Shown here in pieces: positions 405 through 57,671 of a stretch of DNA of 58,917 nucleotides; the first letter of the stretch is position 1; every line of letters begins with the position of its first letter. The translations under genes were made by a program, and so were the position numbers. The notes under the pieces are model-generated. The model saw nothing but the letters and a program-made list of their open reading frames with translations, searched no databases and was not told where the DNA came from. The stretch spans positions 1-58,917 of the forward strand of contig JADLHM010000102.1 in the NCBI GenBank assembly GCA_020848745.1, given 5' to 3'. The stretch is from Deltaproteobacteria bacterium. Its GTDB lineage: Bacteria > Desulfobacterota > Binatia > UTPRO1.

Positions 405-845
405 TCACCGTCCGCCGCGCTCGCGGCGGCGCTGCTCCTCGGTCTCGTGCGGGCGGGTGTAGTCGTCCTCGAGCCGCCACGTCGTACCGATCTCCGGGGT
501 CGACGCCTCGATGACGTCGCAGTCGGTGATGCCGATGAGACGGTGCACCTGACCGAGGCCGCACGTATAGCCCATGCCGGGGGCGAGCTCCGTCTCGACG
601 AGCTCGCCGCTCGGGTCCTGCCAGACGACCTTGGCGCGACCGCGCAAGAGGAGCCAGCTTTCGCGCTTCCGATCGTGCAACTGGAGCGAGAGCCGCGCGC
701 CGGCGTCGATGTGCAGGAGCTTCCCGGCGTAAGGCAGGTCGTCGGGCGTCCAGTGCAGCTCGTAGCCCCACGGCTTCTCGACACGCCGCACGAAGGGCGC
801 GTTCGTGAAACCCGACGGATCGAAGCGCGGCGGGGCCTCGCTCAT
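405..845 (-). CDS. Cupin-domain protein, mannose-6-phosphate isomerase type II-like
   Basis: A 146-residue protein with a single beta-barrel cupin fold. The N-terminal VEKPWGYELHW segment resembles the start of the cupin domain of type II phosphomannose isomerase/mannose-1-phosphate guanylyltransferase. The first cupin motif reads LSLQLHDRKRESWLLLRG and the second contains GQVHRLIG followed by DVIEASTPE. The family usually binds a divalent metal through histidines and a glutamate in these motifs, but the full canonical set is not obvious here. No nucleotidyltransferase domain is attached, so it is probably a sugar-binding or isomerase-like stand-alone cupin. ATG at 845 follows a divergent gap of 93 bp to valS. 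The tail is rich in Glu and Arg. Specific substrate unknown. Confidence 0.75.
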   Translation of the reverse strand: MSEAPPRFDPSGFTNAPFVRRVEKPWGYELHWTPDDLPYAGKLLHIDAGARLSLQLHDRKRESWLLLRGRAKVVWQDPSGELVETELAPGMGYTCGLGQVHRLIGITDCDVIEASTPEIGTTWRLEDDYTRPHETEEQRRRERGGR

Positions 846-938
846 GGCGCGCCACTCTAACCGAACTCGCGCGGCGGCGCGCCCCCCGAATCGTGGCCCG
901 GGTCGCGATTTCCGGGGTCCTCTGCTATCTGCTGCCGA

Positions 939-3575
939 ATGTCCGCGTCGGTTCCGGTCATCGATCCCGAGCAGCTCCCCAAGCATTTCGAGGCGACGGA
1001 GGTGGAAACGCGGCTGCACGAGCGCTGGGACCGGCTCGGCGTCTACGCGCACGATCCGGCGCGACCCCGCGAGGAGACCTTCGTCGTCGACACCCCGCCG
1101 CCGACCGTCTCCGGCTCGCTGCACGTCGGGCACGTGTTCAGCTACACCCACACGGACGTCATCGCGCGCCACCAGCGGATGCGGGGACGGAACGTCTTCT
1201 ATCCCATGGGGTGGGACGACAACGGCCTCCCGACCGAGCGGCGCGTCCAGAACCACTTCCACGTGCGGTGCGATCCGCGCGCCGCGCACGTCCCGAACCT
1301 GCGTCTCGCGCCGGCGACCGCGGCCGAGCTGAAGCAGCCGCCGCGCCTCGTGTCGCGGCCGAACTTCATCGACCTCTGCCTCGAGCTGACGCGCCAGGAC
1401 GAGGAGGCCTTCAAGGCGCTCTGGCGGCGGATCGGGCTCTCGGTCGACTGGAGCCTCGAGTACTCGACGATCGACGCCCGGTGTCGCCATCTCGCGCAGC
1501 TGAGCTTCCGCGACCTCTTCGAGAAGGGGCACGTCTATAGCGTCGAGGCGCCGACGATGTGGGACGTCGACTTCCAGACCGCGGTCGCGCAGGCCGAGGT
1601 CGAGGATCGGCCGACGCGCGGCGCCTTCCACGACGTCGCGTTCGGGGTCGAGGGCGGCGGCGAGTTCACGATCGCGACCACGCGTCCGGAGCTCCTGCCG
1701 GCATGCGTCGCGGTGACCGCGCATCCGGGCGACGCGCGCTGGCGCCATCTCTTCGGCAAACGCGCCTTCACCCCGATCTTCCAGGTGCCGGTGCCGATCT
1801 TCCCGAGCGAGCTCGTGGATCCCGCAAAGGGCACGGGCATCCTCATGGTCTGCACCTTCGGCGACGCGACCGACGTCGTCTGGTGGCGTGAGCAGAGGCT
1901 GCCGCTCCGCCAGATCATCGGCCGCGACGGCCGCCTGGTCCCGGTGACCTTCGGCTCGGACGCCTTCCCGAGCCGTGACCCCGGCGCCGCCAACGCCCGC
2001 TACGCCGCGATCGCCCGCAAGGGCACGGGCGGCGCCCGCCAGGCGATCGTCGAGATGCTGCGCGACGCGACCAACGATGCCACGAACACCGGACGCCCCC
2101 CGCTGCGCGCCGAGCCGAAGCCGATCGAGCATTCCGTCAAGTTCTTCGAGAAGGGCGACCGGCCGCTCGAGTTCATCTCGACGCGCCAGTGGTTCGTGCG
2201 CCTGCTCGACAAGAAGGAGGATCTGCTCGCGATCGGCGACCGCATCCGCTGGCATCCCGACTTCATGCGGCTGCGCTACCGCAACTGGACCGAGAACCTG
2301 AACGTCGACTGGTGCGTGAGCCGCCAGCGCTACTTCGGCGTGCCGTTCCCCGTCTGGTACCCGCTCGATGCCGGCGGCCGGCCCGCGTACGACCGCCCGA
2401 TCGTGGCGCCCGCGGCGAGCCTGCCGGTCGATCCGACCGTCGACGTGGCGCCCGGCTACACGAGCGAGCAGCGCGACCAGCCCGGCGGCTTCACCGCCGA
2501 GGCCGACGTCTACGACACCTGGTTCACGAGCTCGCTCACGCCGCAGATCGGCTCCGGCTGGCTCCTCGACCCGGCCCGGCACGCGGCGCGCTTCCCCGCC
2601 GACATCCGTCCGCAGAGCCACGAGATCATCCGCACCTGGGCGTTCTACACGATCGCCAAGGCGATGCTGCACGAGGCGAGCGTGCCGTGGCACCACGTCG
2701 TGATCTCCGGCTGGATCCTCGACCCCGACCGCAAGAAGATGTCGAAGAGCAAGGGCAACGTCGTGACGCCCATGCACCTGCTCGACCAGTACACCGCCGA
2801 CGGCGTGCGCTACTGGGCCGCGAGCGCGCGGCTCGGCACCGACACGGCCTTCGACGAAAAGGTCCTGAAGATCGGGAAGCGCCTCGTCACCAAGCTCTAC
2901 AACGCCGGCAAGTTCGTCCTCGCGCAGTCGGGGCCACGGGCGCCGATCGACGTCGAGCTCGACCGCGCCTTCGTCGCGCGCCTGCGTGATCTCGTCGCGC
3001 GCGTCTCGGCCTCCTTCGATGCGTTCGACTACGCGCACGCGCTCCAGGACACCGAGTCGTTCTTCTGGCGCGATTTCACCGATACCTACCTCGAGCTCGT
3101 GAAGCACCGCGCCCGCGACGACGCGGGCGGCTCCGCCATCGCGGGGCTCCGCCTCGGGCTTGGCGTGCTCCTGCGGCTCTTCGCACCGGTCCTGCCATAC
3201 GTCACCGACGAGGTCTGGTCCTGGGTCTTCGCGGACGAGACCGGCCACCCGAGCATCCACCGCGCCCCGTGGCCGACGGTCGCCGAGCTCGACGCGATCG
3301 TGCCGCCCCGCGACGCGGGATGCTTCGACGTCGCGGTCGCCTGCCTCGCGGCGATCAACAAGTCGAAATCCGAGGCGGGGGTCTCGCCGGGGCGCGGCGT
3401 CGCGCGCGTGGACCTCGCGGCCCACCCCGACACGCTCGCCATGCTCGCGACGGTGCAGGACGACGTGCTGCGCTCGGCGCGGGTGGAGCGTCACGCGCTC
3501 GTGCCGAACGACACCCTCCCGACCGCCGCCTTCGAAGTCCGCGATCCCGAGTGGGCCGCCCCGGTGGAGGCGTGA
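939..3575 (+). CDS. valS: Valine--tRNA ligase, alternative (actinobacterial/rickettsial-like) form
   Basis: An 878-residue class I aminoacyl-tRNA synthetase that charges tRNA-Val in the cytoplasm. The Rossmann catalytic domain holds the HIGH-type motif as HVGH within PPTVSGSLHVGHVFSYTHTD (about residues 60-80), followed by PMGWDDNGLPTERRVQNHF, a signature of valyl enzymes. The inserted CP1 editing domain includes ATTRPELLPACVAVTAHP. The KMSKS loop is intact as KKMSKSKGN near residue 600. The C-terminal part is an anticodon-binding helical domain, and the long coiled-coil tail of E. coli-type ValS seems absent. That shorter build matches the alternative ValS form known from Actinobacteria and Rickettsiales. 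Its stop overlaps the nadC start (GTGA). Confidence 0.95.
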   Translation: MSASVPVIDPEQLPKHFEATEVETRLHERWDRLGVYAHDPARPREETFVVDTPPPTVSGSLHVGHVFSYTHTDVIARHQRMRGRNVFYPMGWDDNGLPTERRVQNHFHVRCDPRAAHVPNLRLAPATAAELKQPPRLVSRPNFIDLCLELTRQDEEAFKALWRRIGLSVDWSLEYSTIDARCRHLAQLSFRDLFEKGHVYSVEAPTMWDVDFQTAVAQAEVEDRPTRGAFHDVAFGVEGGGEFTIATTRPELLPACVAVTAHPGDARWRHLFGKRAFTPIFQVPVPIFPSELVDPAKGTGILMVCTFGDATDVVWWREQRLPLRQIIGRDGRLVPVTFGSDAFPSRDPGAANARYAAIARKGTGGARQAIVEMLRDATNDATNTGRPPLRAEPKPIEHSVKFFEKGDRPLEFISTRQWFVRLLDKKEDLLAIGDRIRWHPDFMRLRYRNWTENLNVDWCVSRQRYFGVPFPVWYPLDAGGRPAYDRPIVAPAASLPVDPTVDVAPGYTSEQRDQPGGFTAEADVYDTWFTSSLTPQIGSGWLLDPARHAARFPADIRPQSHEIIRTWAFYTIAKAMLHEASVPWHHVVISGWILDPDRKKMSKSKGNVVTPMHLLDQYTADGVRYWAASARLGTDTAFDEKVLKIGKRLVTKLYNAGKFVLAQSGPRAPIDVELDRAFVARLRDLVARVSASFDAFDYAHALQDTESFFWRDFTDTYLELVKHRARDDAGGSAIAGLRLGLGVLLRLFAPVLPYVTDEVWSWVFADETGHPSIHRAPWPTVAELDAIVPPRDAGCFDVAVACLAAINKSKSEAGVSPGRGVARVDLAAHPDTLAMLATVQDDVLRSARVERHALVPNDTLPTAAFEVRDPEWAAPVEA

Positions 3576-40444: not shown

Positions 40445-41398
40445 CTAGCGCGGCGAGGGCCGGCCGACCGTCCCGACCAGCGTGATGCGGCGGGCGCCGC
40501 CCTCGGCTTTCGCGCCCGGCAGCATGTTGATCGCGAGCTTCAGTCCGTCCGGCGCGGCGGCCGTCGGCGTGATGGTGAGGTCGAGGCTCATCGGGCTCGT
40601 CCCGAGGGGCTCGCGGAGAAGCACGCCGCCCTCGCCCTGGAGCGTGATCTCCTGCCCGTCGGCCGCGATGTCCCCGAGCTCCAGGCGTCCGTTCTTGACG
40701 GTCCCCTTCACGTGCACGTCGCTGAAGTGCAGATCCGGGACGGTGATGCCGCGCACCTTCGCGCCTTCGAGCGTGAGCCCGGCGATCCGGAGCTCCACGC
40801 TCCCCGCGGCGGCGGCGAGCCCGCGACCGCCGCCGTCGAGCGCGACCGCGCCCTCGAGGCGGCCGCGCACTCCGCCCTCGAGCCAGGGCCCGAGCCCCGC
40901 GTAGCGCCCGAGGTCGACGCCGGAGAGATTCGCGTCCACGCGTAGACGCTCGGGGCGCGGATCGATCGTCCCCTGCAGCCGCCCGCCGTAGAGGGTCGCG
41001 TCGATGCCGATCGGGTAGGGCGTGCCGCGCAGGAGACCGAGACGCGAGGGCGAGACGCGGAGCGCCTCGGCGGCCAGAAAGGGCTCGCCCTCGGCCTCGC
41101 CCCTGGCCCGAATCCGGAGCCCGTCGATCGCGTAGGTGAGATTCCACCCGAGGCTCCCGCGCCCCGCCTCGACGCGCACGGGCGTCCCGGCCGTCGCCTC
41201 CGAGAGGACGCGCCGCAGGAGCAGGTCGTGCGGAAAGGTCGCGAGGAAGCAGACGAGGAAGAGCGCCAGCGTGTAGAGGCCGTAGCCGAGCCACGCCCGC
41301 CGCCGCGACGGCGTGCTCCCGCCCACGGCGGCGAGCAGGGCCCGGAGGCGGTCCCTCGGATCCGCGGAGCGGCCCGTCGCGGTCGCGCCGGTCGTCAC
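40445..41398 (-). CDS. gspN: Type II secretion system protein N
   Basis: A 317-residue inner-membrane protein with one N-terminal transmembrane segment (YGLYTLALFLVCFLATFP) and a periplasmic beta-rich part resembling the AsmA-like GspN family of deltaproteobacteria: VRVEAGRGSLGWNL, DGLRIRARGEAEG, then repeated strands such as GVDLGRYAGLGPWLEGGV. The GTG at 41398 overlaps the gspM stop (GTGA). As the last gene of the T2SS operon, its exact role in assembly is the least known of the set. Confidence 0.8.
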   Translation of the reverse strand: MTTGATATGRSADPRDRLRALLAAVGGSTPSRRRAWLGYGLYTLALFLVCFLATFPHDLLLRRVLSEATAGTPVRVEAGRGSLGWNLTYAIDGLRIRARGEAEGEPFLAAEALRVSPSRLGLLRGTPYPIGIDATLYGGRLQGTIDPRPERLRVDANLSGVDLGRYAGLGPWLEGGVRGRLEGAVALDGGGRGLAAAAGSVELRIAGLTLEGAKVRGITVPDLHFSDVHVKGTVKNGRLELGDIAADGQEITLQGEGGVLLREPLGTSPMSLDLTITPTAAAPDGLKLAINMLPGAKAEGGARRITLVGTVGRPSPR

Positions 41399-41976
41399 GG
41401 GGCTGCCGTCCTCGTGATCGGCCGCAGGCGTCCGACCACGAGGACGGCGTCGTAGACGAACGGTTGGTCGAAGCGCTTCTTCATCTGGAGCCGGCTCACG
41501 AGCAGCGGCAGGTCGCTCTTCTCCACGTCGTAGAGCAGGTCGACGAGCTCCCGTAGCGACACGCCGGAGAGCCGCATCTCGACGTCCTCTTCCTGGAGAT
41601 CCTCGGCCAGGGTCCGCGTCGACGGATTCATGGCGGCGACGCGGTCCCGGCTCAGGGTGTCGCGCGTCACCGCTTCGAGGTGCGAGAAGAGCGAGAAGTC
41701 GGCGCCGCCGTGCTCCAGCTTTCGCCGCACGACGTCGCGCTCGGTGCGCAGATGGAGGTAGCGGTCGCGGAGTCGCGCCATCTCGACCACGTCGCGCTCG
41801 CTCGCGGCGATCTGCGCCTGGAGCGTGGCGCGGCGCTCCGCGAGGAAGCCGGCGAGCGCCCACACCCCGACCACGAGCCCGGCCGCGACGCCCACCCCGA
41901 GCAGCACGCGCTCGCGCGGGGAGAGCCGCTCGATCAGCGCGGCGAGGCGCTGCAGGAAATCTCCGAGCACGTTCAC
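41395..41976 (-). CDS. gspM: Type II secretion system protein M
   Basis: A 193-residue bitopic inner-membrane protein. LSPRERVLLGVGVAAGLVVG leads into a single transmembrane helix, then a coiled-coil (AERRATLQAQIAASERDVVE) and a ferredoxin-like periplasmic domain ending around YDAVLVVGRL. GspM binds GspL at the inner membrane platform. Both junctions are overlapping NTGA forms. Identification rests on topology and its place between L and N. Confidence 0.8.
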   Translation of the reverse strand: MNVLGDFLQRLAALIERLSPRERVLLGVGVAAGLVVGVWALAGFLAERRATLQAQIAASERDVVEMARLRDRYLHLRTERDVVRRKLEHGGADFSLFSHLEAVTRDTLSRDRVAAMNPSTRTLAEDLQEEDVEMRLSGVSLRELVDLLYDVEKSDLPLLVSRLQMKKRFDQPFVYDAVLVVGRLRPITRTAAP

Positions 41977-47676: not shown

Positions 47677-48891
47677 TCACTTCACGATGCGGTTCAGCTC
47701 GAAAATGGGCAGCAGGATCGCGAGCACGATGAACAGCACGACGCCGCCCATGAAGACGATGATGATCGGCTCGAGGATCGTCGTGAGCGCTCCGACCGCG
47801 TTCTCGACCTCCCCGTCGTAGGTGTCGGCGGCCTTCGCGAGCATTCCCTCGAGCTCGCCGCTCCGCTCGCCGACCGCCGCCATGTGGACGACGAGCGGCG
47901 GGAAGAGCCCGCTCTCGCGGAGCGGCGGCGCGATGCTCTGGCCCTCCCGGATGGCGTCGCGCGCGCGCTCGATGGCGCGGGTCAGCACCGTGTTGTCGAC
48001 GATGCTCTTCACGATCTCGAGGGCGGGAAGGAGCGGGATGCCGCTCGCGAGCAGGGTCGCGAGCGTGCGCGCGAAGCGCGCCACGGCGAGCTTCTGGGTG
48101 AGGCGCCCGAAGTACGGGACGGCGAGCATCAGCCGGTCCACACGGTCGCGACCCGCAGGCGTGCGCGCCCAGCGCGACACGCCGAGCACCGCCGCCGCCG
48201 CGAGCGCGAGGAGCAGCCACCACCACTGGGCCACGAAGTCCGACACGCCGAGAAGGAAGCGGGTCGGGAGCGGCAGTTGCTGGTGGGTCTCCTGGAAGAT
48301 GCGCGTCACCTTGGGCACGACGTACGCCAGGAGGAAGAAGAGGATGGTCGCGCTCAACGCCAGCATGATGGCCGGATAGGTGAGGGCGCTCCGCACCTTG
48401 CCGAGCAGGCGCGCCTGGTTCTCCGTGTAGTCCGCGAGCCGCTCCAGTACGACGTGGAGAGCGCCGCTCGCCTCGCCGGCCCGCACCATGTTGACGTACA
48501 GCGACGCGAAGAGCCGGGGGTGCTGCGCGAGCGCGTCGGCGAGCGAGCGGCCTTCCGTCACCTCCTGCCGGACCTGCGCGAGGGTGCGCGCCAGGACGGG
48601 CCGCTCGGCCTGCTCGCCGAGCGCCCCGAGCGCCTCGACGAGGGGCAGACCGGCGGCGACGAGGGTGCTGAACTGGCGCGTGATCGCCGCGAGCTCCGCC
48701 GCCGGCACGCGCTCGGGCCGGCGCGTCACGAAGCGCATCGTCGCGCCCGCGCGCCGCTCCTCGCGCAGGTCGGTCGGGAAGACCCCCGTCCGGCGCAGCT
48801 TCAGGCGGGCGCCGCGCGGACTGTCCGCGTCGACGACGCCGCCGACGGCGCGGCCGCCGGCGTCGAGCCCGCGATAGGCGTAGAGCGGCAT
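47677..48891 (-). CDS. gspF: Type II secretion inner-membrane platform protein F
   Basis: A 404-residue polytopic protein with the duplicated GspF domain. It begins MPLYAYRGLDAGGRAVGGVV. The first cytoplasmic helical domain contains FSTLVAAGLPLVEALGALGE, and the second is around LARTL-type LLASGIPLLPALEIVKSI. Three transmembrane helices are seen, including FFLLAYVVPKVTRIF and the C-terminal FMGGVVLFIVLAILLPIFEL. Length and features are standard. Confidence 0.95.
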   Translation of the reverse strand: MPLYAYRGLDAGGRAVGGVVDADSPRGARLKLRRTGVFPTDLREERRAGATMRFVTRRPERVPAAELAAITRQFSTLVAAGLPLVEALGALGEQAERPVLARTLAQVRQEVTEGRSLADALAQHPRLFASLYVNMVRAGEASGALHVVLERLADYTENQARLLGKVRSALTYPAIMLALSATILFFLLAYVVPKVTRIFQETHQQLPLPTRFLLGVSDFVAQWWWLLLALAAAAVLGVSRWARTPAGRDRVDRLMLAVPYFGRLTQKLAVARFARTLATLLASGIPLLPALEIVKSIVDNTVLTRAIERARDAIREGQSIAPPLRESGLFPPLVVHMAAVGERSGELEGMLAKAADTYDGEVENAVGALTTILEPIIIVFMGGVVLFIVLAILLPIFELNRIVK

Positions 48892-48913: not shown

Positions 48914-50548
48914 TCACAGCAAGTCGTCTTGCGTGACCCGCAGCACTTCCTCGATCGTGGTCTCGCCGGCGAGGATCTTGGACGCCCCGTCCTCGCGCAG
49001 CGTGACCATGCCGGCCGCGACCGCCGTCCGGCGGATCGCGCTCGCGTCGGCGTTCTTCATGATGAGGCCGCGGATCTCGTCGTCGACCACCAGGAGCTCG
49101 TGGATGCCGGTCCGGCCGCGATACCCGGTCTGCTTGCACGCCTCGCAGCCGGCGCCGCCGGCGTAGAGGGTTCGGCCGCTCGCCTGCTCGGACGTGATGC
49201 CCACCTCGGCGAGGAGCTCGGCGCTCGGCCGCAGCACGCGGCGGCACTGGTCGCACACGCGCCGGAGCAGGCGCTGCGCCATCACCGCCAGCACCGACGA
49301 CGACACCAGGAACGGCTCCGTCCCCATCTCCACGAGGCGCGTCACCGCGCTCGCCGAGTCGTTGGTGTGGAGCGTCGAGAAGACGAGGTGGCCGGTGAGC
49401 GCCGCCTGGATGGCGATCTCGGCGGTCTCGCCGTCCCGGATCTCGCCGACCATGATGACGTCCGGGTCCTGCCGCAGGATCGACCGGAGGCCGTTCGCGA
49501 AGGTGAGATCGATCTTCGGGTTCACCTGCATCTGGCCGACGCCCTGGAGCTGGTACTCGATCGGATCCTCGATGGTGATGATGTTGCGCTCGGTCGAGTT
49601 GATGGTGGAGAGCGCGGCGTAGAGCGTGGTCGTCTTGCCGCTGCCGGTCGGACCCGTGACGAGCACGATGCCGTGGCTCTGCCGGATCAGCCGCTCCACG
49701 AGCGCCAGGTTCCGCCCGGTGAGCCCGAGCTCCTCCAGTCCGAGAAGCGTCGCGGCCCGATCGAGGAGGCGGAGCACCACGCGCTCGCCGTAGGCGGTCG
49801 GGATGACCGAGACCCGGACGTCGATGTCCTTGCCCGCGACCTTGGTCCGGATCCGGCCGTCCTGCGGCAGGCGCTTCTCGGCGATGTCGAGTCCCGCCAT
49901 GACCTTCACACGCGAGATGATGACCGGCTGGAAGCGCTTCGGCGGCGAGATGACGTCGTAGAGGATGCCGTCGATCCGGAAGCGGACCGTGAGCGCGCGC
50001 TCGAACGGCTCGATGTGGATGTCGCTGGCGCGGTCCTTGACGGCCTGGAAGAGGAGCGAGTTCACGAGACGGATGATGGGCGCCTCGTCGCTCGCCTCGA
50101 GCAGATCGCGCGGCTCCTCGAGTTCGGTCGCGATCAGATCGAGGCGCTCCTCCTCGAGATTGCCCATGAGATCGGCGGCCGAACCCGACGCGAGATCGTA
50201 GGCCCGGTTGAGCGCGTCGGTGAGCGCGTCGGCCGGCACCACCACCGGCCGGATCGCCGCCCCGTAGAGGACGCGCAGGTCGTCGAGCGGGCCGAGCGCG
50301 CGCGGGTCGCCGACGGCGACGACGACCCCGTCGGACTCGCGCTTGAGCGGCAGGACGAGGTGCTTGCGCGCGAACTGCATCGGCAACGACGTCAGCAGCT
50401 CGGGATCGACCTCGCCCGCTGCGACCCGGGCCGCGAACGGCAGGTCGAACGCGGCGGCCCGCGCGCGCGCCCCGGCCTCGGGGCCGTCGGACGCCGCGAC
50501 ACCCTCCGGGGTGCGAGCCGCCGACGACGTGCGTGCGGAAGTGGCCAT
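48914..50548 (-). CDS. gspE: Type II secretion ATPase
   Basis: A 544-residue hexameric cytoplasmic ATPase that drives pseudopilus assembly. After a GspE N1-type domain (LPMQFARKHLVLPLKRES) and the N2 region RASDIHIEPFERALTVRFRI, the motor has Walker A GPTGSGKTTT, Asp box TIEDPIEYQL, Walker B LRQDPDVIMVGEIRD and His box TGHLVFSTLHTNDS. The CDQC...CEAC zinc-binding tetracysteine motif follows. ATG at 50548, 5 bp after gspD. Confidence 0.96.
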   Translation of the reverse strand: MATSARTSSAARTPEGVAASDGPEAGARARAAAFDLPFAARVAAGEVDPELLTSLPMQFARKHLVLPLKRESDGVVVAVGDPRALGPLDDLRVLYGAAIRPVVVPADALTDALNRAYDLASGSAADLMGNLEEERLDLIATELEEPRDLLEASDEAPIIRLVNSLLFQAVKDRASDIHIEPFERALTVRFRIDGILYDVISPPKRFQPVIISRVKVMAGLDIAEKRLPQDGRIRTKVAGKDIDVRVSVIPTAYGERVVLRLLDRAATLLGLEELGLTGRNLALVERLIRQSHGIVLVTGPTGSGKTTTLYAALSTINSTERNIITIEDPIEYQLQGVGQMQVNPKIDLTFANGLRSILRQDPDVIMVGEIRDGETAEIAIQAALTGHLVFSTLHTNDSASAVTRLVEMGTEPFLVSSSVLAVMAQRLLRRVCDQCRRVLRPSAELLAEVGITSEQASGRTLYAGGAGCEACKQTGYRGRTGIHELLVVDDEIRGLIMKNADASAIRRTAVAAGMVTLREDGASKILAGETTIEEVLRVTQDDLL

Positions 50549-50553
50549 GCCGA

Positions 50554-53157
50554 TCAGCGCTCCTCGTGGTCGGTCGCCGTCGCCTCCGGGCGGGCGGCGC
50601 CGAGCGAGAGCGTCAACGTACCACCCTGATCCGTGAGGTCATAGGCCGGCGGCACGTCGGTCGTGAGATCGATCACGAGCCGCATCCGGCCGTCGTGGTG
50701 GGCGACCCGCAGGCGCCGCACCAGCGGATCCATCACCTTCATGAACTCGACCTTGGCGCGCTTGCGGCTGTCGCCGTACACGTCGATCACGATCCGCCCC
50801 GGCTCCGAGAGCGTGTAGTGCGTGATCTTCGTCGGCGGCCCGCCGACGTCGATGACGATCGCGGCGCCGTCGGCGCGGCGATCGACCGTGATCGACGACG
50901 TCTCGAGCGGCCCCGGAGCCGCCGTGGCGCCGGTCGTCGCCACCGAAGCGCCGGGGTCTCCCGCCGGCACCTCGCGCTCCTCGGGAAGGTTGAACGACGG
51001 CATGTCGAGCGGATCGGGACGCCGGCGCGGCGCGCCCGCGGAGTCCATCAGGTTCCGGAAACGGTCGCGCTCGGCGACCGAGACGTCGGCCGCGTCCTGC
51101 TCGTTCTTGATGATGTGCGGGGTGAGGAAGATGAGCAGGTTGATCTTGCTCTTGTTCCGCTCCGTGTTCTTGAAGAGGTTGCCGAGGACGGGAATCTCCG
51201 CGAGGTAGGGCACCTTGCTCTCACGCTCGTTGATCGCGTCGGAGATGAGGCCGCCGATCACGATCGTCTGGCCGTCGCGCACGTTGATCGTCGTGCTGGC
51301 GCTCCGCACCGTCGTCGTCGGGCCGACCTCGTTGGCGTCGAGGATGGGGTTCGGCACGATCGCCGACACCTCCTCGAAGAGCGCGAGCCGCACCATCGCG
51401 CCTTCGGAGATCTGCGGCGTGAGCCGGAGCGTGATGCCGACGTCCTCCCGCTCGATCGTGGCGAACGTGTTGTCGAGGTTCGTCTCGCTCGTCGCGCGGC
51501 TCGCCACGAAGGGGACGTTCTGGCCGACGACGATCTCGGCCTCCTCGTTGTCCGTGGTGAGGATGTTCGGAGCCGAGAGGATGTTGACGTCGTTCGCGTT
51601 GTCGAGCGCGCGCAGGAGTGCCGCCTGCGCCGGCACCTTGGTGCCGTCGGGCAGGGTGACGGTCTGCTCGGAGACCGCCGCGAGGATGAGCCCCGGGAGG
51701 CTCCCCGGGTTGCTGAGCACGTTGTTGATGTTGCCGAGGTTGGTGCGCCCGACGCCGATGCCGTTCGGCAGGCCGACGCCGCCCTGGAGCTCGATGCCGA
51801 GCTGGCGGATGCGGTCGAGCGTCACCTCGAGGATGATCGCCTCGACGTAGACCTGGCGGCGACGGATGTCGAGCTTTTCGATCACGCCGCGCAGGATTTC
51901 GAAATCCTCGGGTACGGCGGCGACGATCAACGAATTGGTCGCCGGATCGGCGGTGATGCGGACGTCGCCGGCGAAGTCGATCGCCGATGGCGGTTGTTGC
52001 CCCCCCGGCTGCCCGGCCTGCTGGCGCAGCTGTTGCTGACGGTTCTGCGACGAGCGCCGGAGGCTGCTGCCGTTCGTCCGCCGGTTGCGCGCGCTGCCGG
52101 CCTGCCCGGGCTGGTTCGGCTGGCGGGTGCGGGCGGCGGTCGCGCCGCCGGCGGCGCCGGTCACGTCGAGGAGCACCGGCAGGAGGTCCTCGGAGTTGGC
52201 GTACTTCAGATAGTACACGTGCACCTTGCCGCTGCCGGGCGGAAGCGGCACGTCGAGACGCTCGACCATCGCCCGGATCGCCTGCATCTGCTCGGGCGGG
52301 GCGTTCACGATGAGCGTGTTCGTCCGATCGTCGGGCGTGATCTTGAACGCCCGCAGATGCGCGCCGCCGGCCGGCGCCGGCTTCCCGGGCTGCGCGGGCG
52401 CGCCCGGCGTCGAGCGATCCTCGAGCGCCGCCTGGATCGTCTCGGCGAGCTCGGCCGCCGCGGCGTGGCGCAGGTTCAGGATCGCGGTTTGCCGGCGCGA
52501 GCTCGCCACGTCGAGCTCCGCCACCAGCTTCGAGAGCCGCTCCACGTTGGCGGCGGAGTCGACGATGATGAGTGCGTTCGTCTGCGGGTAGCCGGTGACG
52601 AGCCCGTCGGGCGACACCATCGGCTGGATCACGCCGATCAGGTCGCCGACGTCGACCTGCCTGAGCGGAACGAGGCGCGTCACGTACTCTTCGGCGGGCG
52701 AGGGCGCGCCGCCGTCGACGGTGCGAAGGCTCGTCGCCTTGGCTTCCTTGGTCGGGATGATGCGAACGGCGGCGCCGCTCGGCACCGTCGTGAACCCCTT
52801 CACCTGCAGGACGGCCTGGAAGACCTGGTACGCCTCCTCGGGCGTGATGCGGGTCGGCGACACCACGGTCACCTTGCCCTGGACGCGCTCGTCCATGACG
52901 AAGTTCTTGCCGGTGATCTCGCCGATGAACTTGACGAGGACGGCAATGTCGACGTCCTGGAAGTCCATCGTGATGTAGCGCTCGCCGTCGCTCTCGACGA
53001 CCGCGGGACCCGCCGCCGGAGACGCCTCCACGGCGCCCGGCGTCCGCCCCGCCGCGGGCGCCTCGCCCTCGGCGCGCGCGCCCCCCGCGCCGAGCGCCAC
53101 GACGACCACCGCCGTGATGCATCGGCTCACGAATCTCGGTGCTCCCCGTACTGCCAC
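50554..53157 (-). CDS. gspD: Type II secretion secretin with C-terminal AMIN-like domain
   Basis: About 867 residues forming the outer-membrane secretin channel. A signal peptide ends near GAGGARA. N0 (YITMDFQDVDIAVLVKFIGE), N1, N2 and N3 follow, with a Gln/Arg/Asn-rich insertion in N3. The secretin core includes VGQNVPFVASR, RLTPQISEG, and VRDGQTIVIGGLISD. The last 110 residues or so are unusual: ADGAAIVIDVGGPPTKI, PGRIVIDVYG and GRMRLVIDLTTDVPPAYDL resemble an AMIN domain, normally N-terminal in PilQ secretins. Start at GTG 53157 has GAGAGG 8 nt upstream; GTG 53166 and 53163 are alternatives. Confidence 0.93.
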   Translation of the reverse strand: MAVRGAPRFVSRCITAVVVVALGAGGARAEGEAPAAGRTPGAVEASPAAGPAVVESDGERYITMDFQDVDIAVLVKFIGEITGKNFVMDERVQGKVTVVSPTRITPEEAYQVFQAVLQVKGFTTVPSGAAVRIIPTKEAKATSLRTVDGGAPSPAEEYVTRLVPLRQVDVGDLIGVIQPMVSPDGLVTGYPQTNALIIVDSAANVERLSKLVAELDVASSRRQTAILNLRHAAAAELAETIQAALEDRSTPGAPAQPGKPAPAGGAHLRAFKITPDDRTNTLIVNAPPEQMQAIRAMVERLDVPLPPGSGKVHVYYLKYANSEDLLPVLLDVTGAAGGATAARTRQPNQPGQAGSARNRRTNGSSLRRSSQNRQQQLRQQAGQPGGQQPPSAIDFAGDVRITADPATNSLIVAAVPEDFEILRGVIEKLDIRRRQVYVEAIILEVTLDRIRQLGIELQGGVGLPNGIGVGRTNLGNINNVLSNPGSLPGLILAAVSEQTVTLPDGTKVPAQAALLRALDNANDVNILSAPNILTTDNEEAEIVVGQNVPFVASRATSETNLDNTFATIEREDVGITLRLTPQISEGAMVRLALFEEVSAIVPNPILDANEVGPTTTVRSASTTINVRDGQTIVIGGLISDAINERESKVPYLAEIPVLGNLFKNTERNKSKINLLIFLTPHIIKNEQDAADVSVAERDRFRNLMDSAGAPRRRPDPLDMPSFNLPEEREVPAGDPGASVATTGATAAPGPLETSSITVDRRADGAAIVIDVGGPPTKITHYTLSEPGRIVIDVYGDSRKRAKVEFMKVMDPLVRRLRVAHHDGRMRLVIDLTTDVPPAYDLTDQGGTLTLSLGAARPEATATDHEER

Positions 53158-53187
53158 TGTCACCACCTCTCGCCCCGCCGGGACGGG

Positions 53188-54072
53188 TCAGCGAATTTCG
53201 TAGGAGAAGTTCTTCGCCTGCTTGTTGCGTTGCAGGTCGACCGCGATGTGCCCTTCGTTCTGCAGCTCGGTGAAGAGGGTGATCGCCTTGGTCGGATCGG
53301 TGAGCTCGACGCCGTTCACGCGGTTGATGATGTCGCCGTTCTGCAGCCCGATCTTCTCGAACACCGACCCGGGCTTGATCGCGAAGACCCGGAAGCCCAC
53401 GGTCTTGCCGTTCTCGAAGAAGGGAACCGCGCGCGCCTGGGTGAACACCTCGTTGATGTTGGCGACGGTCGATTCGAGCTCGCGGCGGTCGATCAGGAAC
53501 TTGTTGTCCGCGGTCTTGCGGATCCGCTCGCCGGCCGCGGCGGGGGCCCCGCCGGCGGGGGATGCATCCTTACCGCTCGCGCGCGCCGACGAGATCTCCA
53601 GCACCTCCTCCGCGCCGTCGCGGCCGAGGATCACGCGGTCCCACTCGACGCGAACGAGGGTCGCCACCTCGAGGACGGTGTCGCCGACCCGGTAGAGCGC
53701 CTGGCGGCGTGCGGCCTGATCCTCGATGATCGCGTAGGAGCGCGCCGGATCGTGGGCGAGCGCGGTGCCCCAGAGCTTCAGGTTCAAGTCCGTGCGCTTG
53801 AACGCTTCCGACGCCGCTCCCGGCGCCGCCGGACCGCCGGGGTGCTTCACCGCGTTGAACACGTCGCGCTCGGCGATCACCGCGTAGGCCGACTCCGGCT
53901 CGACGGCCGCCGACGGCGCGAGCGGCGGCGGCGCGGCGGCGGCGCGCGGCGGTGGAGCGGCGAGCCGCGCGGCGATCATCGCGCTCACCACGCGCGCCGC
54001 GAAGAACGCGATCGTCGCCAGCAGGAGCAGATTGAGCGCGATCAGCGCCGGGCGCCACGACGCGGTCAGCAT
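53188..54072 (-). CDS. gspC: Type II secretion system protein C
   Basis: A 294-residue inner-membrane protein connecting the platform with the secretin. One transmembrane helix near the start (LIALNLLLLATIAFFAARVV) is followed by a Pro/Ala linker. The HR domain is AFKRTDLNLKLWGTALAHDP and then RVGDTVLEVATLVRVEWDRV. The C-terminal PDZ domain contains GFRVFAIKPGSVFEKIGLQN and GDIINRVNG. ATG at 54072 after GAGGTCCGAGGC. It heads the T2SS operon. Confidence 0.92.
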   Translation of the reverse strand: MLTASWRPALIALNLLLLATIAFFAARVVSAMIAARLAAPPPRAAAAPPPLAPSAAVEPESAYAVIAERDVFNAVKHPGGPAAPGAASEAFKRTDLNLKLWGTALAHDPARSYAIIEDQAARRQALYRVGDTVLEVATLVRVEWDRVILGRDGAEEVLEISSARASGKDASPAGGAPAAAGERIRKTADNKFLIDRRELESTVANINEVFTQARAVPFFENGKTVGFRVFAIKPGSVFEKIGLQNGDIINRVNGVELTDPTKAITLFTELQNEGHIAVDLQRNKQAKNFSYEIR

Positions 54073-54187: not shown

Positions 54188-55675
54188 GTGGTGGAAGCGG
54201 AGCACGAGCAAGTCCTCGTCCGACGCAGGAAGCTCGCCGAGCTCGTGCGCCTCGGCTGCGCGCCGTACCCGAACGATTTCGCGCCGCGCGACCAGGCCGG
54301 CGACCTCCTGGCGCGCTGGAACGCGACGCCCGCCGCGACGCTCGAAGCGTCGCCGGTGCCGGTCGCGCTCGCCGGCCGCCTCATGGCGATCCGCGACTTC
54401 GGAAAGGCCGCCTTCGCGCACCTCCAGGACGCCAGCGGGCGCCTGCAGATCCACGCACAGCGCGCGATCGTCGGCGACGAGCAATGGGCGCGCTTCCAGC
54501 AGCTCGACCTCGGCGACATCGTCGGCGTCGAGGGACGCCTCTTCCGCACCAGGACGAACGAGCTGACGGTCGCCGCCGAGCGCGTACGCTACCTCGCGAA
54601 GGCGCTGCAGCCGCTGCCAGAGAAGTGGCACGGCCTCCAGGACGTCGAGCGCCGCTACCGCCAACGCTACCTCGACCTCCTCGCCAACCCGGAGAGCCGT
54701 GAGGTCTTCCGCAAACGCGCGCACCTGCTCCAGGCGCTGCGCCGCTTCTTCGGCGCACGCGGCTTCCTCGAGGTCGAGACGCCGATGATGCAGGCCATCG
54801 CGGGGGGCGCGCTCGCCCGTCCGTTCGTGACCCATCACAACACGCTGGACATCGACCTCTACCTGCGGATCGCGCCCGAGCTGTATCTCAAGCGGCTGGT
54901 CGTGGGCGGCATCGACCGCGTCTTCGAGCTGAACCGCAACTTCCGGAACGAAGGGATGTCGACGGAGCACAACCCGGAGTTCACGATGCTCGAGTTCTAC
55001 CAGGCCTACGCGACGTACACCGACCTCATGGATCTCACCGAGGAGCTCTTCGCCGAGCTCGCGCGCGAGGTCGCCGGTGGGCTCGTCGTCCCCTGGGGCG
55101 AGCACATGATCGACCTGACGCCGCCGTGGACGCGCCTCACGGTGAAGGAGGCCGTCGCCCGGCATACCGGCCTCCCAGCCGCCGACGTCGACGATCCGGC
55201 GAGGCTCCGCGCCTACGCGGCGCAGCACGGGATCCCGCTTCCCGACGGCGCGCCCTACGGCAAGGTCCTGATCGAGATCTTCGAGAAGACCGCCGAGCAC
55301 CGCCTGATCCAGCCGACGTTCGTCACGGCGTATCCGGTCGAGGTTTCGCCGCTCGCGCGCTCCAACGACGCCGACCCGACGCTCGTGGACCGCTTCGAGC
55401 TCATCGTGGCCGGGCGCGAGCTCGCCAACGGCTTCTCGGAGCTGAACGACCCCGCGGAACAGCGGGCCCGCTTCGAGATGCAGCTCACGGCCAAGAGCGG
55501 CGGCGACGACGAGGCGCACGCAATGGACGAGGACTACGTGCGGGCGCTCGAGCACGGCATGCCGCCGACCGCGGGCGAGGGCATCGGCATCGACCGGCTC
55601 GCGATGCTGCTCACCAACTCGGCGTCGATCCGCGACGTGATCCTCTTCCCGCAGATGCGCCCGGAGCGGCGCTGA
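54188..55675 (+). CDS. lysS: Lysine--tRNA ligase (class II)
   Basis: A 495-residue enzyme that charges tRNA-Lys. The OB-fold anticodon-binding domain includes GRLMAIRDFGKAAFAHLQDA. The class II catalytic domain has motif 1 around ETPMMQAIAGGALARPF, motif 2 RNFRNEGMSTEHNPEFTMLE, and motif 3 GEGIGIDRLAMLLTN. VSPLARSNDADPTLVDRFEL and ELANGFSELNDP are LysS-specific. Start set at GTG 54188 (GTG 54191 possible). It lies divergent from gspC, and lolC begins 19 bp downstream. Confidence 0.96.
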   Translation: MVEAEHEQVLVRRRKLAELVRLGCAPYPNDFAPRDQAGDLLARWNATPAATLEASPVPVALAGRLMAIRDFGKAAFAHLQDASGRLQIHAQRAIVGDEQWARFQQLDLGDIVGVEGRLFRTRTNELTVAAERVRYLAKALQPLPEKWHGLQDVERRYRQRYLDLLANPESREVFRKRAHLLQALRRFFGARGFLEVETPMMQAIAGGALARPFVTHHNTLDIDLYLRIAPELYLKRLVVGGIDRVFELNRNFRNEGMSTEHNPEFTMLEFYQAYATYTDLMDLTEELFAELAREVAGGLVVPWGEHMIDLTPPWTRLTVKEAVARHTGLPAADVDDPARLRAYAAQHGIPLPDGAPYGKVLIEIFEKTAEHRLIQPTFVTAYPVEVSPLARSNDADPTLVDRFELIVAGRELANGFSELNDPAEQRARFEMQLTAKSGGDDEAHAMDEDYVRALEHGMPPTAGEGIGIDRLAMLLTNSASIRDVILFPQMRPERR

Positions 55676-55694
55676 GCCGCCCCCAGGGCCCCCC

Positions 55695-56975
55695 GTGCGC
55701 TACGAGCTGATGGTCGGGCTGCGCTACCTGCGCGCCAAACGCTCCGAGGCGTTCATCTCGCTCATCACGGTGATCTCGATCGTCGGCGTCATGATCGGCG
55801 TGATGACGCTCAACATCGTCCTCGCCGTGATGACCGGCTTCGAGGAGGATCTGCGCGACCGCATCCTCGGCTTCAACCCGCACATCGTGCTGGTGTCGTA
55901 CGCCGGAACCATCGCGCACCCCGACGAGATCGTCCGCAAGGTGAAGGAGACCCCCGGCGTCGCCGCGGCCGCGCCCCTCGTCTACAGCCAGGTGATGCTG
56001 AGCAGCGGCCAGAGCGTCTCGGGCGTCGTCGTGCGCGGCGTCCCGCCCGACATGGAGGAGGCGGTCGTCGACCTGAAGGCGCATCTCACCAGCGGCTCGC
56101 TCGCCGGGCTCGGCGCCCCCTTCGAAGTGCCGGTCGAGGGCGAGAAAGACGCCGACAAGGACGGCCGCGTCGACACGACGACCCTCACCGGCGTGATCCT
56201 CGGCGGCGAGCTCGCGAAGCAGCTCGGGCTCGCGGTCGGCGACCCCGTGAGCGTCGTGTCGCCGCTCGGCACGCCGTCGCCGGTCGGGCCGATCCCGAAG
56301 GTGAAGCGCTTCGTCCTCGCGGGCACCTTCGACTCCGGCATGTACGACTACGACTCCGGCCTCCTCTACATGGACATCGCCGACGCCCAGAAGTTCTTCG
56401 GCCTCGGCGACGCGATCACCGGTGTCGAGATCCGGGTGACGGACCTCTACGGCGCCGAGCAGGTGGCGCGCCGGCTGGAGCAGACCCTCGGTACGCCGTT
56501 CCGCGCCCGCGACTGGATGGAGGTGAACCGCAACCTCTTCCTCGCCTTCCGGCTCGAGAAGGTCGTCTACTTCATCGTGCTGACGCTGATCGTCCTGGTC
56601 GCGGCCTTCAACATCGTCGCCACCCTCATCATGGTGGTCATGGAGAAGCGGAAGGACATCGCGATCCTCAAGTCGATGGGCGCCACCGACCGCTCGATCG
56701 CCCGCATCTTCATGTTGAAGGGACTCATCATCGGCGTCGTGGGCACGCTTCTCGGCGTGGTCGGCGGATACGCGGGCTGCTGGCTGCTGCGGCACTACCA
56801 GTTCGTCGAGCTGCCGAAGGATGTCTTCTACGTTTCGACGCTGCCGGTCCGAGTCTACGGCGAGAACTTCGCGACGGTCGCCCTGGTCTCCGTCGTCATC
56901 TGCCTGCTGGCCACGATCTACCCCGCGCGACAGGCGGCGGGACTGGCGCCCGTGGAGGTGATCCGCTACGAGTAG
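55695..56975 (+). CDS. lolC: Lipoprotein-releasing ABC transporter permease LolC/E type
   Basis: A 426-residue inner-membrane permease with four transmembrane helices and a large periplasmic domain between the first and second (about residues 45-275). MVGLRYLRAKRSEAFISLIT starts the MacB-PCD type domain. The FtsX-like C terminus has VVYFIVLTLIVLVAAFNIVA and EKRKDIAILKSMGATDRSIA, the coupling region. It extracts lipoproteins for LolA. One permease with LolD suggests a homodimer or single LolC/E (LolF-like). GTG start 55695. Confidence 0.92.
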   Translation: MRYELMVGLRYLRAKRSEAFISLITVISIVGVMIGVMTLNIVLAVMTGFEEDLRDRILGFNPHIVLVSYAGTIAHPDEIVRKVKETPGVAAAAPLVYSQVMLSSGQSVSGVVVRGVPPDMEEAVVDLKAHLTSGSLAGLGAPFEVPVEGEKDADKDGRVDTTTLTGVILGGELAKQLGLAVGDPVSVVSPLGTPSPVGPIPKVKRFVLAGTFDSGMYDYDSGLLYMDIADAQKFFGLGDAITGVEIRVTDLYGAEQVARRLEQTLGTPFRARDWMEVNRNLFLAFRLEKVVYFIVLTLIVLVAAFNIVATLIMVVMEKRKDIAILKSMGATDRSIARIFMLKGLIIGVVGTLLGVVGGYAGCWLLRHYQFVELPKDVFYVSTLPVRVYGENFATVALVSVVICLLATIYPARQAAGLAPVEVIRYE

Positions 56976-56981
56976 GCGCCA

Positions 56982-57671
56982 TTGATCGCCCTCCGCAATC
57001 TTTCGAAGGAGTACGTCGACGGACCGCGGGTGGTGCGGGTGCTTTCCGGTCTCGATCTGGAGATCGGGCAGGGAGAACGAGTCGCGATCGTGGGAGAGTC
57101 GGGGGTGGGGAAGAGTACGCTGCTGCACATCGTGGGCACGCTCGATCGACCGACGGGAGGCGAGGTGTGGTTCGACGGTGAAAACCTCACGAGCAAGAGC
57201 GATCGCGAACTCGCCCATTTCCGCAACCGCGAGATCGGCTTCATCTTCCAGTTCCATCACCTGCTGCCCGACTTCACGGCCCTCGAGAACGTCATGATGC
57301 CCGCGCTGATCGCCGGCACCGCCACGGAGCCCGCCCGCAAGCGCGCGACCGAGCTCCTCGAGCGGGTCGGGCTCGCCGAGCGCCTCGACCACAAGCCGGG
57401 CGAGCTCTCCGGGGGCGAGCAACAGCGCGTGGCGGTCGCCCGCGCCCTCGTGCAGGAGCCCCGCGCCGTCCTGGCGGACGAGCCGACGGGCAACCTCGAT
57501 CCGGTCACCGGCGAAGGCGTGCAGAACCTCCTGCTGGAGCTGAACCGCGAGCACGCCATCACGCTCGTCGTCGTCACCCACAGCGCGAGCCTCGCGGGCG
57601 CGATGGACCGGACGCTCAGGCTGCGCGCCGGCCGGATCGCGGGCGACACGCCGCGCGCGGCGGCCGTCTGA
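56982..57671 (+). CDS. lolD: Lipoprotein-releasing ABC transporter ATPase
   Basis: A 229-residue ATPase with Walker [11 protein letters not shown]-loop [12 protein letters not shown], signature [15 protein letters not shown], Walker [13 protein letters not shown] and the switch His in VVVTHS. It energises LolC. The start is TTG at 56982, the first plausible codon 6 bp after lolC, giving [14 protein letters not shown], the correct beginning. bamA follows closely, an arrangement known in deltaproteobacteria. Confidence 0.95.

What the first reader, a model, noticed from the sequence alone, without database searches (positions are those of the whole stretch)
50554..50885. AMIN-like domain at the C terminus of the GspD secretin
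AMIN domains bind peptidoglycan or septal structures and sit at the N terminus of PilQ. Here a similar fold follows the secretin channel, where GspD normally has a short S-domain that binds the pilotin. This could replace pilotin-dependent targeting.
Basis: partly seen in the sequence, partly recalled or inferred. Interest (0 to 1): 0.55.

Follow-up and report, generated by a model that had tools for sequence, protein, structure and literature searches.

The report
Secretin with a wall-binding tail
In one group of uncultured bacteria the outer-membrane channel of the protein-exporting type II secretion machine carries an extra domain at its tail end of a type that elsewhere grips the cell wall, probably tethering or positioning the channel; this is a new arrangement of known parts.

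Summary
The last ~110 residues of GspD (window 50554-53166, minus strand) contain a real AMIN domain: Pfam AMIN 33.4 bits against a cut-off of 20.5, and an AlphaFold model whose best fold matches are AmiC and PilQ. The protein is GspD, not PilQ, in a gspC-M operon. The tail occurs in 6 of 6 genomes of its family, but in none of the other 136 GspD tails scored from a phylum sample.

The AMIN domain follows an S-domain-like segment that AMIN-less relatives share, so it is an addition, not a replacement. One known pilotin family matches in 0 of 198 phylum genomes, so its absence here says nothing. The genome also encodes a probable GspA/GspB pair, the pilotin-independent assembly route.

Most likely the tail binds peptidoglycan and captures or anchors the secretin. 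Support by analogy: another family of the class ends a GspD in SPOR, an unrelated wall-binding domain, and a distant GspD carries AMIN at its N terminus. No binding was tested.

The parts
50554..53166 (-). gspD, type II secretion secretin, 870 aa
   Evidence: ORF; TIGR02517 GspD 555.9 bits, cut-off 351.35; PilQ model TIGR02515 253.3, below its cut-off 284.35; N0, Secretin_N x3, Secretin domains
50608..50892 (-). C-terminal AMIN domain, residues 759-853 of GspD
   Evidence: Pfam PF11741 33.4-37.3 bits against 20.5; AlphaFold model and fold matches to AmiC and PilQ; profile hits to PilQ and AmiC in PDB
50896..50985 (-). variable linker between S-like segment and AMIN (about residues 728-757)
   Evidence: length and sequence differ between genera; low pLDDT over most of it
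50962..51099 (-). S-domain-like segment (residues 690-735, overlapping the start of the linker): helix 697-709 and conserved LDMPSF stretch
   Evidence: class alignment; helix in model, pLDDT only about 57-65; equivalence to the S-domain is by position only
51106..51609 (-). Secretin channel domain, Pfam PF00263, residues 520-687
   Evidence: 171.4 bits
53188..54072 (-). gspC (start at the internal ATG inferred)
   Evidence: T2SSC 70.3 bits and PDZ
48914..50548 (-). gspE, ATPase, starting 5 bases after the gspD stop codon
   Evidence: T2SSE 488.6 bits, MshEN
47677..48891 (-). gspF
   Evidence: T2SSF 211 bits
41395..46796 (-). gspG, H, I, J, K, L, M in this order towards lower coordinates (starts approximate)
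   Evidence: T2SSG, T2SSI, T2SSJ, T2SSK, T2SSL and PilM_2 over cut-off; H by N_methyl and position only; T2SSM 25.2 bits, below its cut-off 27.8
40445..41400 (-). probable gspN
   Evidence: position and look only; no Pfam match

Best explanation
GspD of this lineage (family of the MAG UTPRO1) has an AMIN domain fused after its S-domain-like segment by a flexible linker. The AMIN domain hangs in the periplasm outside the channel and binds peptidoglycan, probably as PilQ's AMIN domains do. It captures GspD monomers on the wall, perhaps preferentially septal or polar wall, and then holds the assembled channel to it. It works in addition to the usual assembly factors (here probably GspA/GspB), not instead of an S-domain. 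Shown: domain identity, predicted fold, position, presence throughout the family and absence from the other tails scored, retained S-like segment. Inferred from relatives: periplasmic place, peptidoglycan binding, capture, anchoring. Not shown: septal preference.
For: AMIN profile and fold. Present in 6 of 6 family genomes over 3 genera; the 5 sequences long enough to use are one clade in the GspD tree, 100/100. Purifying selection in the two close pairs: dN/dS of AMIN 0.22 and 0.27. S-like segment kept. Other wall-binding domains on GspD: SPOR at the C terminus in G033 and G046 (64.3 and 48.9 bits, cut-off 21), AMIN at the N terminus of a GspD in G180 (32.9 bits; TIGR02517 545.7 bits). [quoted passage not shown] GspA and OutB (GspB) bind peptidoglycan and help secretin assembly (PMC9239104, passages; PMC6532946, passages).
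Against: I found no binding or localisation data for any of these proteins. Reach is uncertain: PMC9239104 gives 12-25 nm from outer membrane to wall and says the wall was seen around the N-terminal part of two other secretins, while this domain hangs from the C terminus on a linker of about 30 residues. The SPOR-bearing GspDs look, by eye, like the other GspD type of the class (tail alike that of the second GspD), so the parallel is across paralogues. Against the more distant L006, dN/dS of AMIN came out at 1.12 (dN 0.40, dS 0.36), which does not show constraint; I distrust it because of the strong GC bias. The two same-genus relatives G001 and G002 (89% complete) show no full-length GspA match, so GspAB may not be general in the family. 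The own GspB match is under its cut-off.
Confidence: 0.68

Rival explanations
1. The AMIN tail replaces a pilotin: it brings monomers to the wall below the outer membrane and so makes a lipoprotein chaperone unnecessary.
For: No AspS match at E <= 1 and no PulS/OutS match over the cut-off in 6 family genomes. PMC6532946 argues that pilotin and EpsAB may both act by concentrating monomers near the membrane (passages), which an AMIN tail could also do.
Against: AspS-type pilotin matches in 0 of 198 phylum genomes at E <= 0.01, AMIN tail or not. S-like segment kept. Probable GspA/GspB pair in the own genome; full-length GspA match in 4 of 6 family genomes and in 21 of 52 class genomes outside the family.
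Confidence: 0.12
2. The AMIN tail is a protein-protein module: it packs on the outside of the channel or binds another envelope protein and does not touch peptidoglycan.
For: The beta-sandwich fold alone also resembles non-wall proteins such as small heat-shock domains, at lower Z; an AMIN domain on FliO of Campylobacter is needed to stabilise FlhB (PMC12403147, abstract and passages).
Against: The best sequence and fold matches are AmiC and PilQ, whose AMIN domains are reported to bind wall; SPOR, an unrelated wall binder, sits at the same end in another family.
Confidence: 0.15
3. A neutral or decaying fusion without function.
For: AMIN changes faster than the secretin domain (dN/dS 0.22-0.27 against 0.03-0.09 in the close pairs); 1.12 against the distant L006.
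Against: Kept in 6 of 6 genomes and 3 genera with many invariant positions; dN/dS well under 1 in the two close pairs.
Confidence: 0.05

Closest known systems
PilQ, type IVa pilus secretin with N-terminal AMIN domains (Myxococcus xanthus, Pseudomonas aeruginosa)
   Same: A secretin subunit carrying a wall-binding AMIN domain. In the AMIN tree the GspD tails fall with the six PilQ AMINs sampled from the same class and the own AmiC, apart from PilQ AMINs of the rest of the phylum, on a 100/99 branch.
   Different: AMIN sits at the C terminus, after the channel; the protein is GspD by model score and operon. A 2025 paper still calls AMIN 'T4P-secretin-specific' (PMC12114550, one passage).
LspD, Legionella T2SS secretin with N-terminal SPOR domain
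   Same: T2SS secretin with its own wall-binding domain; PMC9239104 (2022) calls it the only one known (passage).
   Different: Other domain family (SPOR), other terminus; Legionella lacks GspA and GspB, this genome probably has them.
ExeD/ExeAB of Aeromonas hydrophila, pilotin-independent GspD
   Same: S-domain present without known pilotin; in this genome too a GspA with PG_binding_1 beside a probable GspB (passages).
   Different: ExeD's C-terminal tail is flexible and probably not a stable domain.
AmiC, E. coli amidase with N-terminal AMIN (4bin)
   Same: Same fold: Foldseek rank 1; Z 9.8, rmsd 3.0 over 103 residues.
   Different: Enzyme, not a channel; 16-20% identity.

Membership tests
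AMIN domain (PF11741) | profile score over the curated cut-off | tested here: met
   33.4 bits (whole), 37.3 bits (tail) against 20.5; 4 of 4 relatives scanned 32.9-43.2
AMIN domain (PF11741) | beta-sandwich fold as in AmiC and PilQ | tested here: met
   Foldseek ranks 1-4 and VIA-align ranks 1-3 and 5 are AmiC or PilQ; that the matched PilQ parts (B2 domain in 4aqz) are AMIN is recalled
AMIN domain (PF11741) | peptidoglycan binding | not testable with these tools
   needs a binding assay
GspD (T2SS secretin) | GspD equivalog model and GspD-type N0 domain | tested here: met
   TIGR02517 555.9 bits against 351.35; PF21305 N0 91.2 bits
GspD (T2SS secretin) | encoded in a gsp operon | tested here: met
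   gspC upstream, gspE-M downstream
PilQ (type IV pilus secretin) | PilQ model over cut-off | tested here: not met
   TIGR02515 253.3 bits against 284.35; another secretin with STN and AMIN domains, taken as PilQ, is on contig C9
Pilotin-dependent secretin | S-domain with the Ala-Phe motif in helix alpha-12 | tested here: inconclusive
   no Ala-Phe in residues 690-735 as read; the place of alpha-12 is not established; crude string test: 4 of 30 class and 9 of 129 phylum tails hold AF somewhere
Pilotin-dependent secretin | a known T2SS pilotin in the genome | tested here: not met
   PF16549 0 of 6, PF09691 0 of 6 over cut-off, E. coli rings in both controls; but PF16549 is 0 of 198 in the phylum too
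GspAB-assisted (ExeD-like) secretin | GspA with AAA and PG_binding_1 domains in the genome | tested here: met
   L202 (G000:C46): AAA_22 96.8 and PG_binding_1 57.7 bits, both over cut-off
GspAB-assisted (ExeD-like) secretin | GspB beside GspA, acting on this GspD | tested here: inconclusive
   neighbour has T2SSB at its C-terminal end, 21.6 bits or 25.0, cut-off 28.4; which of the two gsp clusters of the genome it serves is not known

The most novel reading that the evidence does not exclude
The C terminus of GspD, just after the S-domain, is a slot that lineages fill with their own wall-binding module (AMIN here, SPOR in another family, an unknown ~100-residue domain in several others). It turns the secretin into a self-anchoring channel: monomers are captured by septal or polar peptidoglycan and assembled there, which would give polar type II secretion and make secretin assembly largely independent of pilotins.
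Probability: 0.22. Interest if true: 0.68.

Novelty: new variant of a known kind. Interest (0 to 1): 0.45.

Why it matters
How T2SS secretins find and cross the cell wall differs between bacteria. A 2022 paper knew of one T2SS secretin with its own wall-binding domain, Legionella LspD (PMC9239104), and a 2025 paper calls AMIN specific to type IV pilus secretins (PMC12114550). This family adds an AMIN-bearing GspD, at the opposite end of the protein, and the survey adds SPOR at the C terminus and AMIN at the N terminus of other GspDs. The modules are separable, so one can ask directly whether wall capture of secretin monomers is enough to guide assembly and place the machine in the cell.

Tried and rejected
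PilQ mis-assigned as GspD: rejected by model scores and operon. Misassembly or frameshift fusion: rejected, same frame in separate assemblies, and gspE follows after 5 bases. Pilotin absence as evidence for replacement: rejected by the background count for the AspS type; no background count was made for PulS/OutS.

The unknown C-terminal domain of 8 class GspDs was tested as a divergent SPOR or AMIN: no Pfam match in the 2 of 8 sequences scanned, hhalign probability 2.0 against SPOR and 0.2 against AMIN, no PDB profile match better than E 0.36.

Donor of the domain: the AMIN tree fits a copy of the lineage's own PilQ AMIN, but the class is sampled by six PilQs only, AmiC falls in the same half on a very long branch, and the GspD tails do not nest inside PilQ, so the donor is not shown. 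dN/dS against L006 is set aside but told above.

The phylum search with the tail profile (395 genomes, at most 8 candidates scored in each, 61 genomes with a match) gave two hits spanning S-like segment and AMIN, both in this family. The other hits start at model position 36 or later, except one of G011 that covers positions 1-80 only. For L048-L057 the AMIN lies in the N-terminal part of the frame; for the remaining hits I judged from frame length alone that they are pilQ or amidases.

Limits of the survey: five of 52 class genomes outside the family were not read (G019, G028, G042, G048, G053); the tail of G049 runs into a contig edge; for some of the 47 read the nearest secretin may not be GspD (for example G018, no GspD match). 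GspDs outside the phylum could not be surveyed. De Souza 2008 on AMIN domains is not held. A search for Binatota with type II secretion and one for GspD with TPR and C-terminal extension found no papers.

Full report
WHAT IS THERE. The window's minus strand carries a type II secretion operon. gspC is at 53188-54072, gspD at 50554-53166, gspE at 48914-50548 and gspF at 47677-48891, followed by gspG to gspM. H rests on the N_methyl match and position, M is below its cut-off, and a last gene, probably gspN, has no Pfam match. GspD scores 555.9 bits with the GspD model and only 253.3 with the PilQ model, under that model's cut-off. Its last part is an AMIN domain: residues 759-853, 33.4 bits (cut-off 20.5), 37.3 bits when the tail is scanned alone.

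FOLD. AlphaFold2 on residues 690-870 with three relatives gave mean pLDDT 68.6. The AMIN part is the confident part (blocks of 75-89) and has nine strands. Foldseek's first four PDB matches are AmiC and PilQ structures. VIA-align ranks PilQ 3jc8 and AmiC 4bin first with Z 9.8, aligned over 100 and 103 residues at 3.5 and 3.0 A; small heat-shock and other folds start at Z 7.6. A profile of six family members finds PilQ (E 6e-6) and AmiC (E 9e-4) among solved structures.

WHOSE IT IS. That this is the class Binatia is my recollection of GTDB, not a tool result. The tail is present in 6 of 6 genomes held of the family, in 3 genera; the order search returned the same 6.

HOW RARE. A GspD search of 198 phylum genomes found GspD at E <= 1e-100 in 115. 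Of the 139 listed matches (counted by hand) I have 138 tails; one match lies at a contig edge. All 138 were located. 137 were longer than 15 residues and were scored; all of these have their stop codon in view. Only the window's own has AMIN, 1 of 137. In the class, tails from 47 of 52 genomes outside the family were read. None matches the AMIN HMM, two have SPOR (G033, G046), eight have an unknown ~100-residue domain (G007, G011, G023, G030, G036, G043, G050, G057), and in the other 37 I recognised no domain. The in-box AMIN HMM was trained with this family and PilQ AMINs, so very divergent AMIN domains could be missed.

NOT A REPLACEMENT OF THE S-DOMAIN. Between channel and AMIN lies a segment with a predicted helix and a conserved L[D/E]xPS[F/W] stretch. 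It is shared with class relatives, several of which end soon after it. P[SGT][F/W] occurs in 19 of 30 class sequences (6 of 6 with AMIN, 13 of 24 without) and 1 of 129 other tails of the phylum sample. The AMIN domain is therefore an addition behind an existing C-terminal segment. In the GspD tree the five AMIN-bearing sequences long enough to use form one branch (100/100), and the eight with the unknown domain are separated from them, which fits separate gains.

ASSEMBLY FACTORS. Neither known T2SS pilotin family is found over its cut-off in the six family genomes. One of them, the AspS type, matches in 0 of 198 phylum genomes as well. The own genome has, on contig C46, a 604-residue protein with AAA and C-terminal PG_binding_1 domains beside a 308-residue protein with a sub-threshold T2SSB match. 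That is the GspA/GspB layout. A relative, G004, has the same pair, its GspB at 29.6 bits in the genome search (over the cut-off) and 26.3 in the protein scan (under it). Full-length GspA matches occur in 4 of 6 family genomes and in 21 of 52 class genomes outside the family. The 10 class genomes with SPOR or the unknown domain on GspD have none: 0 of 8 and 0 of 2, against 21 of 42 others (from; relatedness not corrected). So those tails may stand in for GspA, but the AMIN tail does not follow this pattern. The genome has a second gsp cluster with its own GspD, so the GspAB pair may serve either. [quoted passage not shown]

CONVERGENCE. GspD-type secretins of G033 and G046 (family f2) end in SPOR, 64.3 and 48.9 bits against 21. 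In G033 the frame of 1018 residues carries it, and its upstream part scores best with GspD (249.9 bits over half the model, so under the whole-protein cut-off). GspD of G180 has an AMIN domain before N0 (32.9 bits; GspD model 545.7 bits); it is 1 of the 30 GspD loci that came with upstream flanks. A 2022 paper states that only Legionella LspD is known as a T2SS secretin with a wall-binding domain, an N-terminal SPOR (PMC9239104, passages), and a 2025 paper calls AMIN T4P-secretin-specific (PMC12114550, one passage).

PRINT SEARCHES. AMIN domain with GspD and T2SS: 6 papers, 6 shown. AMIN with secretin: 25 of 310 shown. AMIN with GspD as whole words: 20 of 27 shown. C-terminal AMIN with secretin: 1. 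SPOR with secretin and T2SS: 5. No title or start of abstract among those shown describes a C-terminal AMIN or SPOR on GspD. I read passages of eight of the listed papers, none in full; in one of them 'Amin' was an author's name. Papers outside this open library were not searched.

MECHANISM. In Myxococcus, PilQ without its AMIN domains formed no polar clusters and no detectable heat-resistant multimers, and the authors propose that AMIN captures monomers on septal and polar wall (PMC10653833, passages). The pilotin and GspAB are suggested to act by concentrating monomers (PMC6532946). The simplest reading is that a C-terminal AMIN does the same for GspD and then ties the assembled channel to the wall. 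Weak point: the distance. The same literature gives 12-25 nm between outer membrane and wall, and a C-terminal tail on about 30 flexible residues may only just reach it, or may act only before insertion.

VERDICT. The role as a pilotin substitute is not supported. It is a new architecture made of known parts, family-wide, under purifying selection in the close pairs (the distant pair does not show it), with parallels elsewhere that make wall binding the best guess.

Noticed in passing
L217 (G033), L220 (G046): GspD-type secretins of another family of the class end in a SPOR domain (64.3 and 48.9 bits), a second wall-binding module at the same end of the protein.
   Followed up: partly
L083, frame 475-3426, residues 169-245: A GspD (G180, family f41) with an AMIN domain before N0, as in PilQ.
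   Followed up: partly
L013, L014, L015, L016, L023, L025, L026, L028 (C-terminal ~105 residues): An unknown conserved domain (RYVLLA...YPEG...LHW...W) at the C terminus of GspD in eight class genomes; no Pfam match in the two sequences scanned, no SPOR or AMIN likeness by hhalign.
   Followed up: partly
class genomes: A full-length GspA match is missing from all 10 class genomes whose GspD ends in the unknown domain (0 of 8) or SPOR (0 of 2), against 21 of 42 others outside the family. These tails may take over GspA's wall contact; relatedness was not corrected for.
   Followed up: partly
L107, L119, L126, L127, L131, L132: GspDs of two other families (f29, f47) whose tails look like TPR repeats; three of the six were scanned and match TPR models. 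The T4P pilotin PilF and TadD are TPR proteins, so a built-in pilotin is conceivable.
   Followed up: partly
L202:4615-7402, G000:C46: Probable gspA/gspB pair away from the gsp operon in the window's genome.
   Followed up: yes
L198, G000:C155: A second gsp cluster with its own GspD; no AMIN match there.
   Followed up: partly
window 54188-57671: A lysS-like gene and genes that look like lolC/E and lolD (lipoprotein sorting) lie divergently next to the gsp operon; names recalled, not searched.
   Followed up: no
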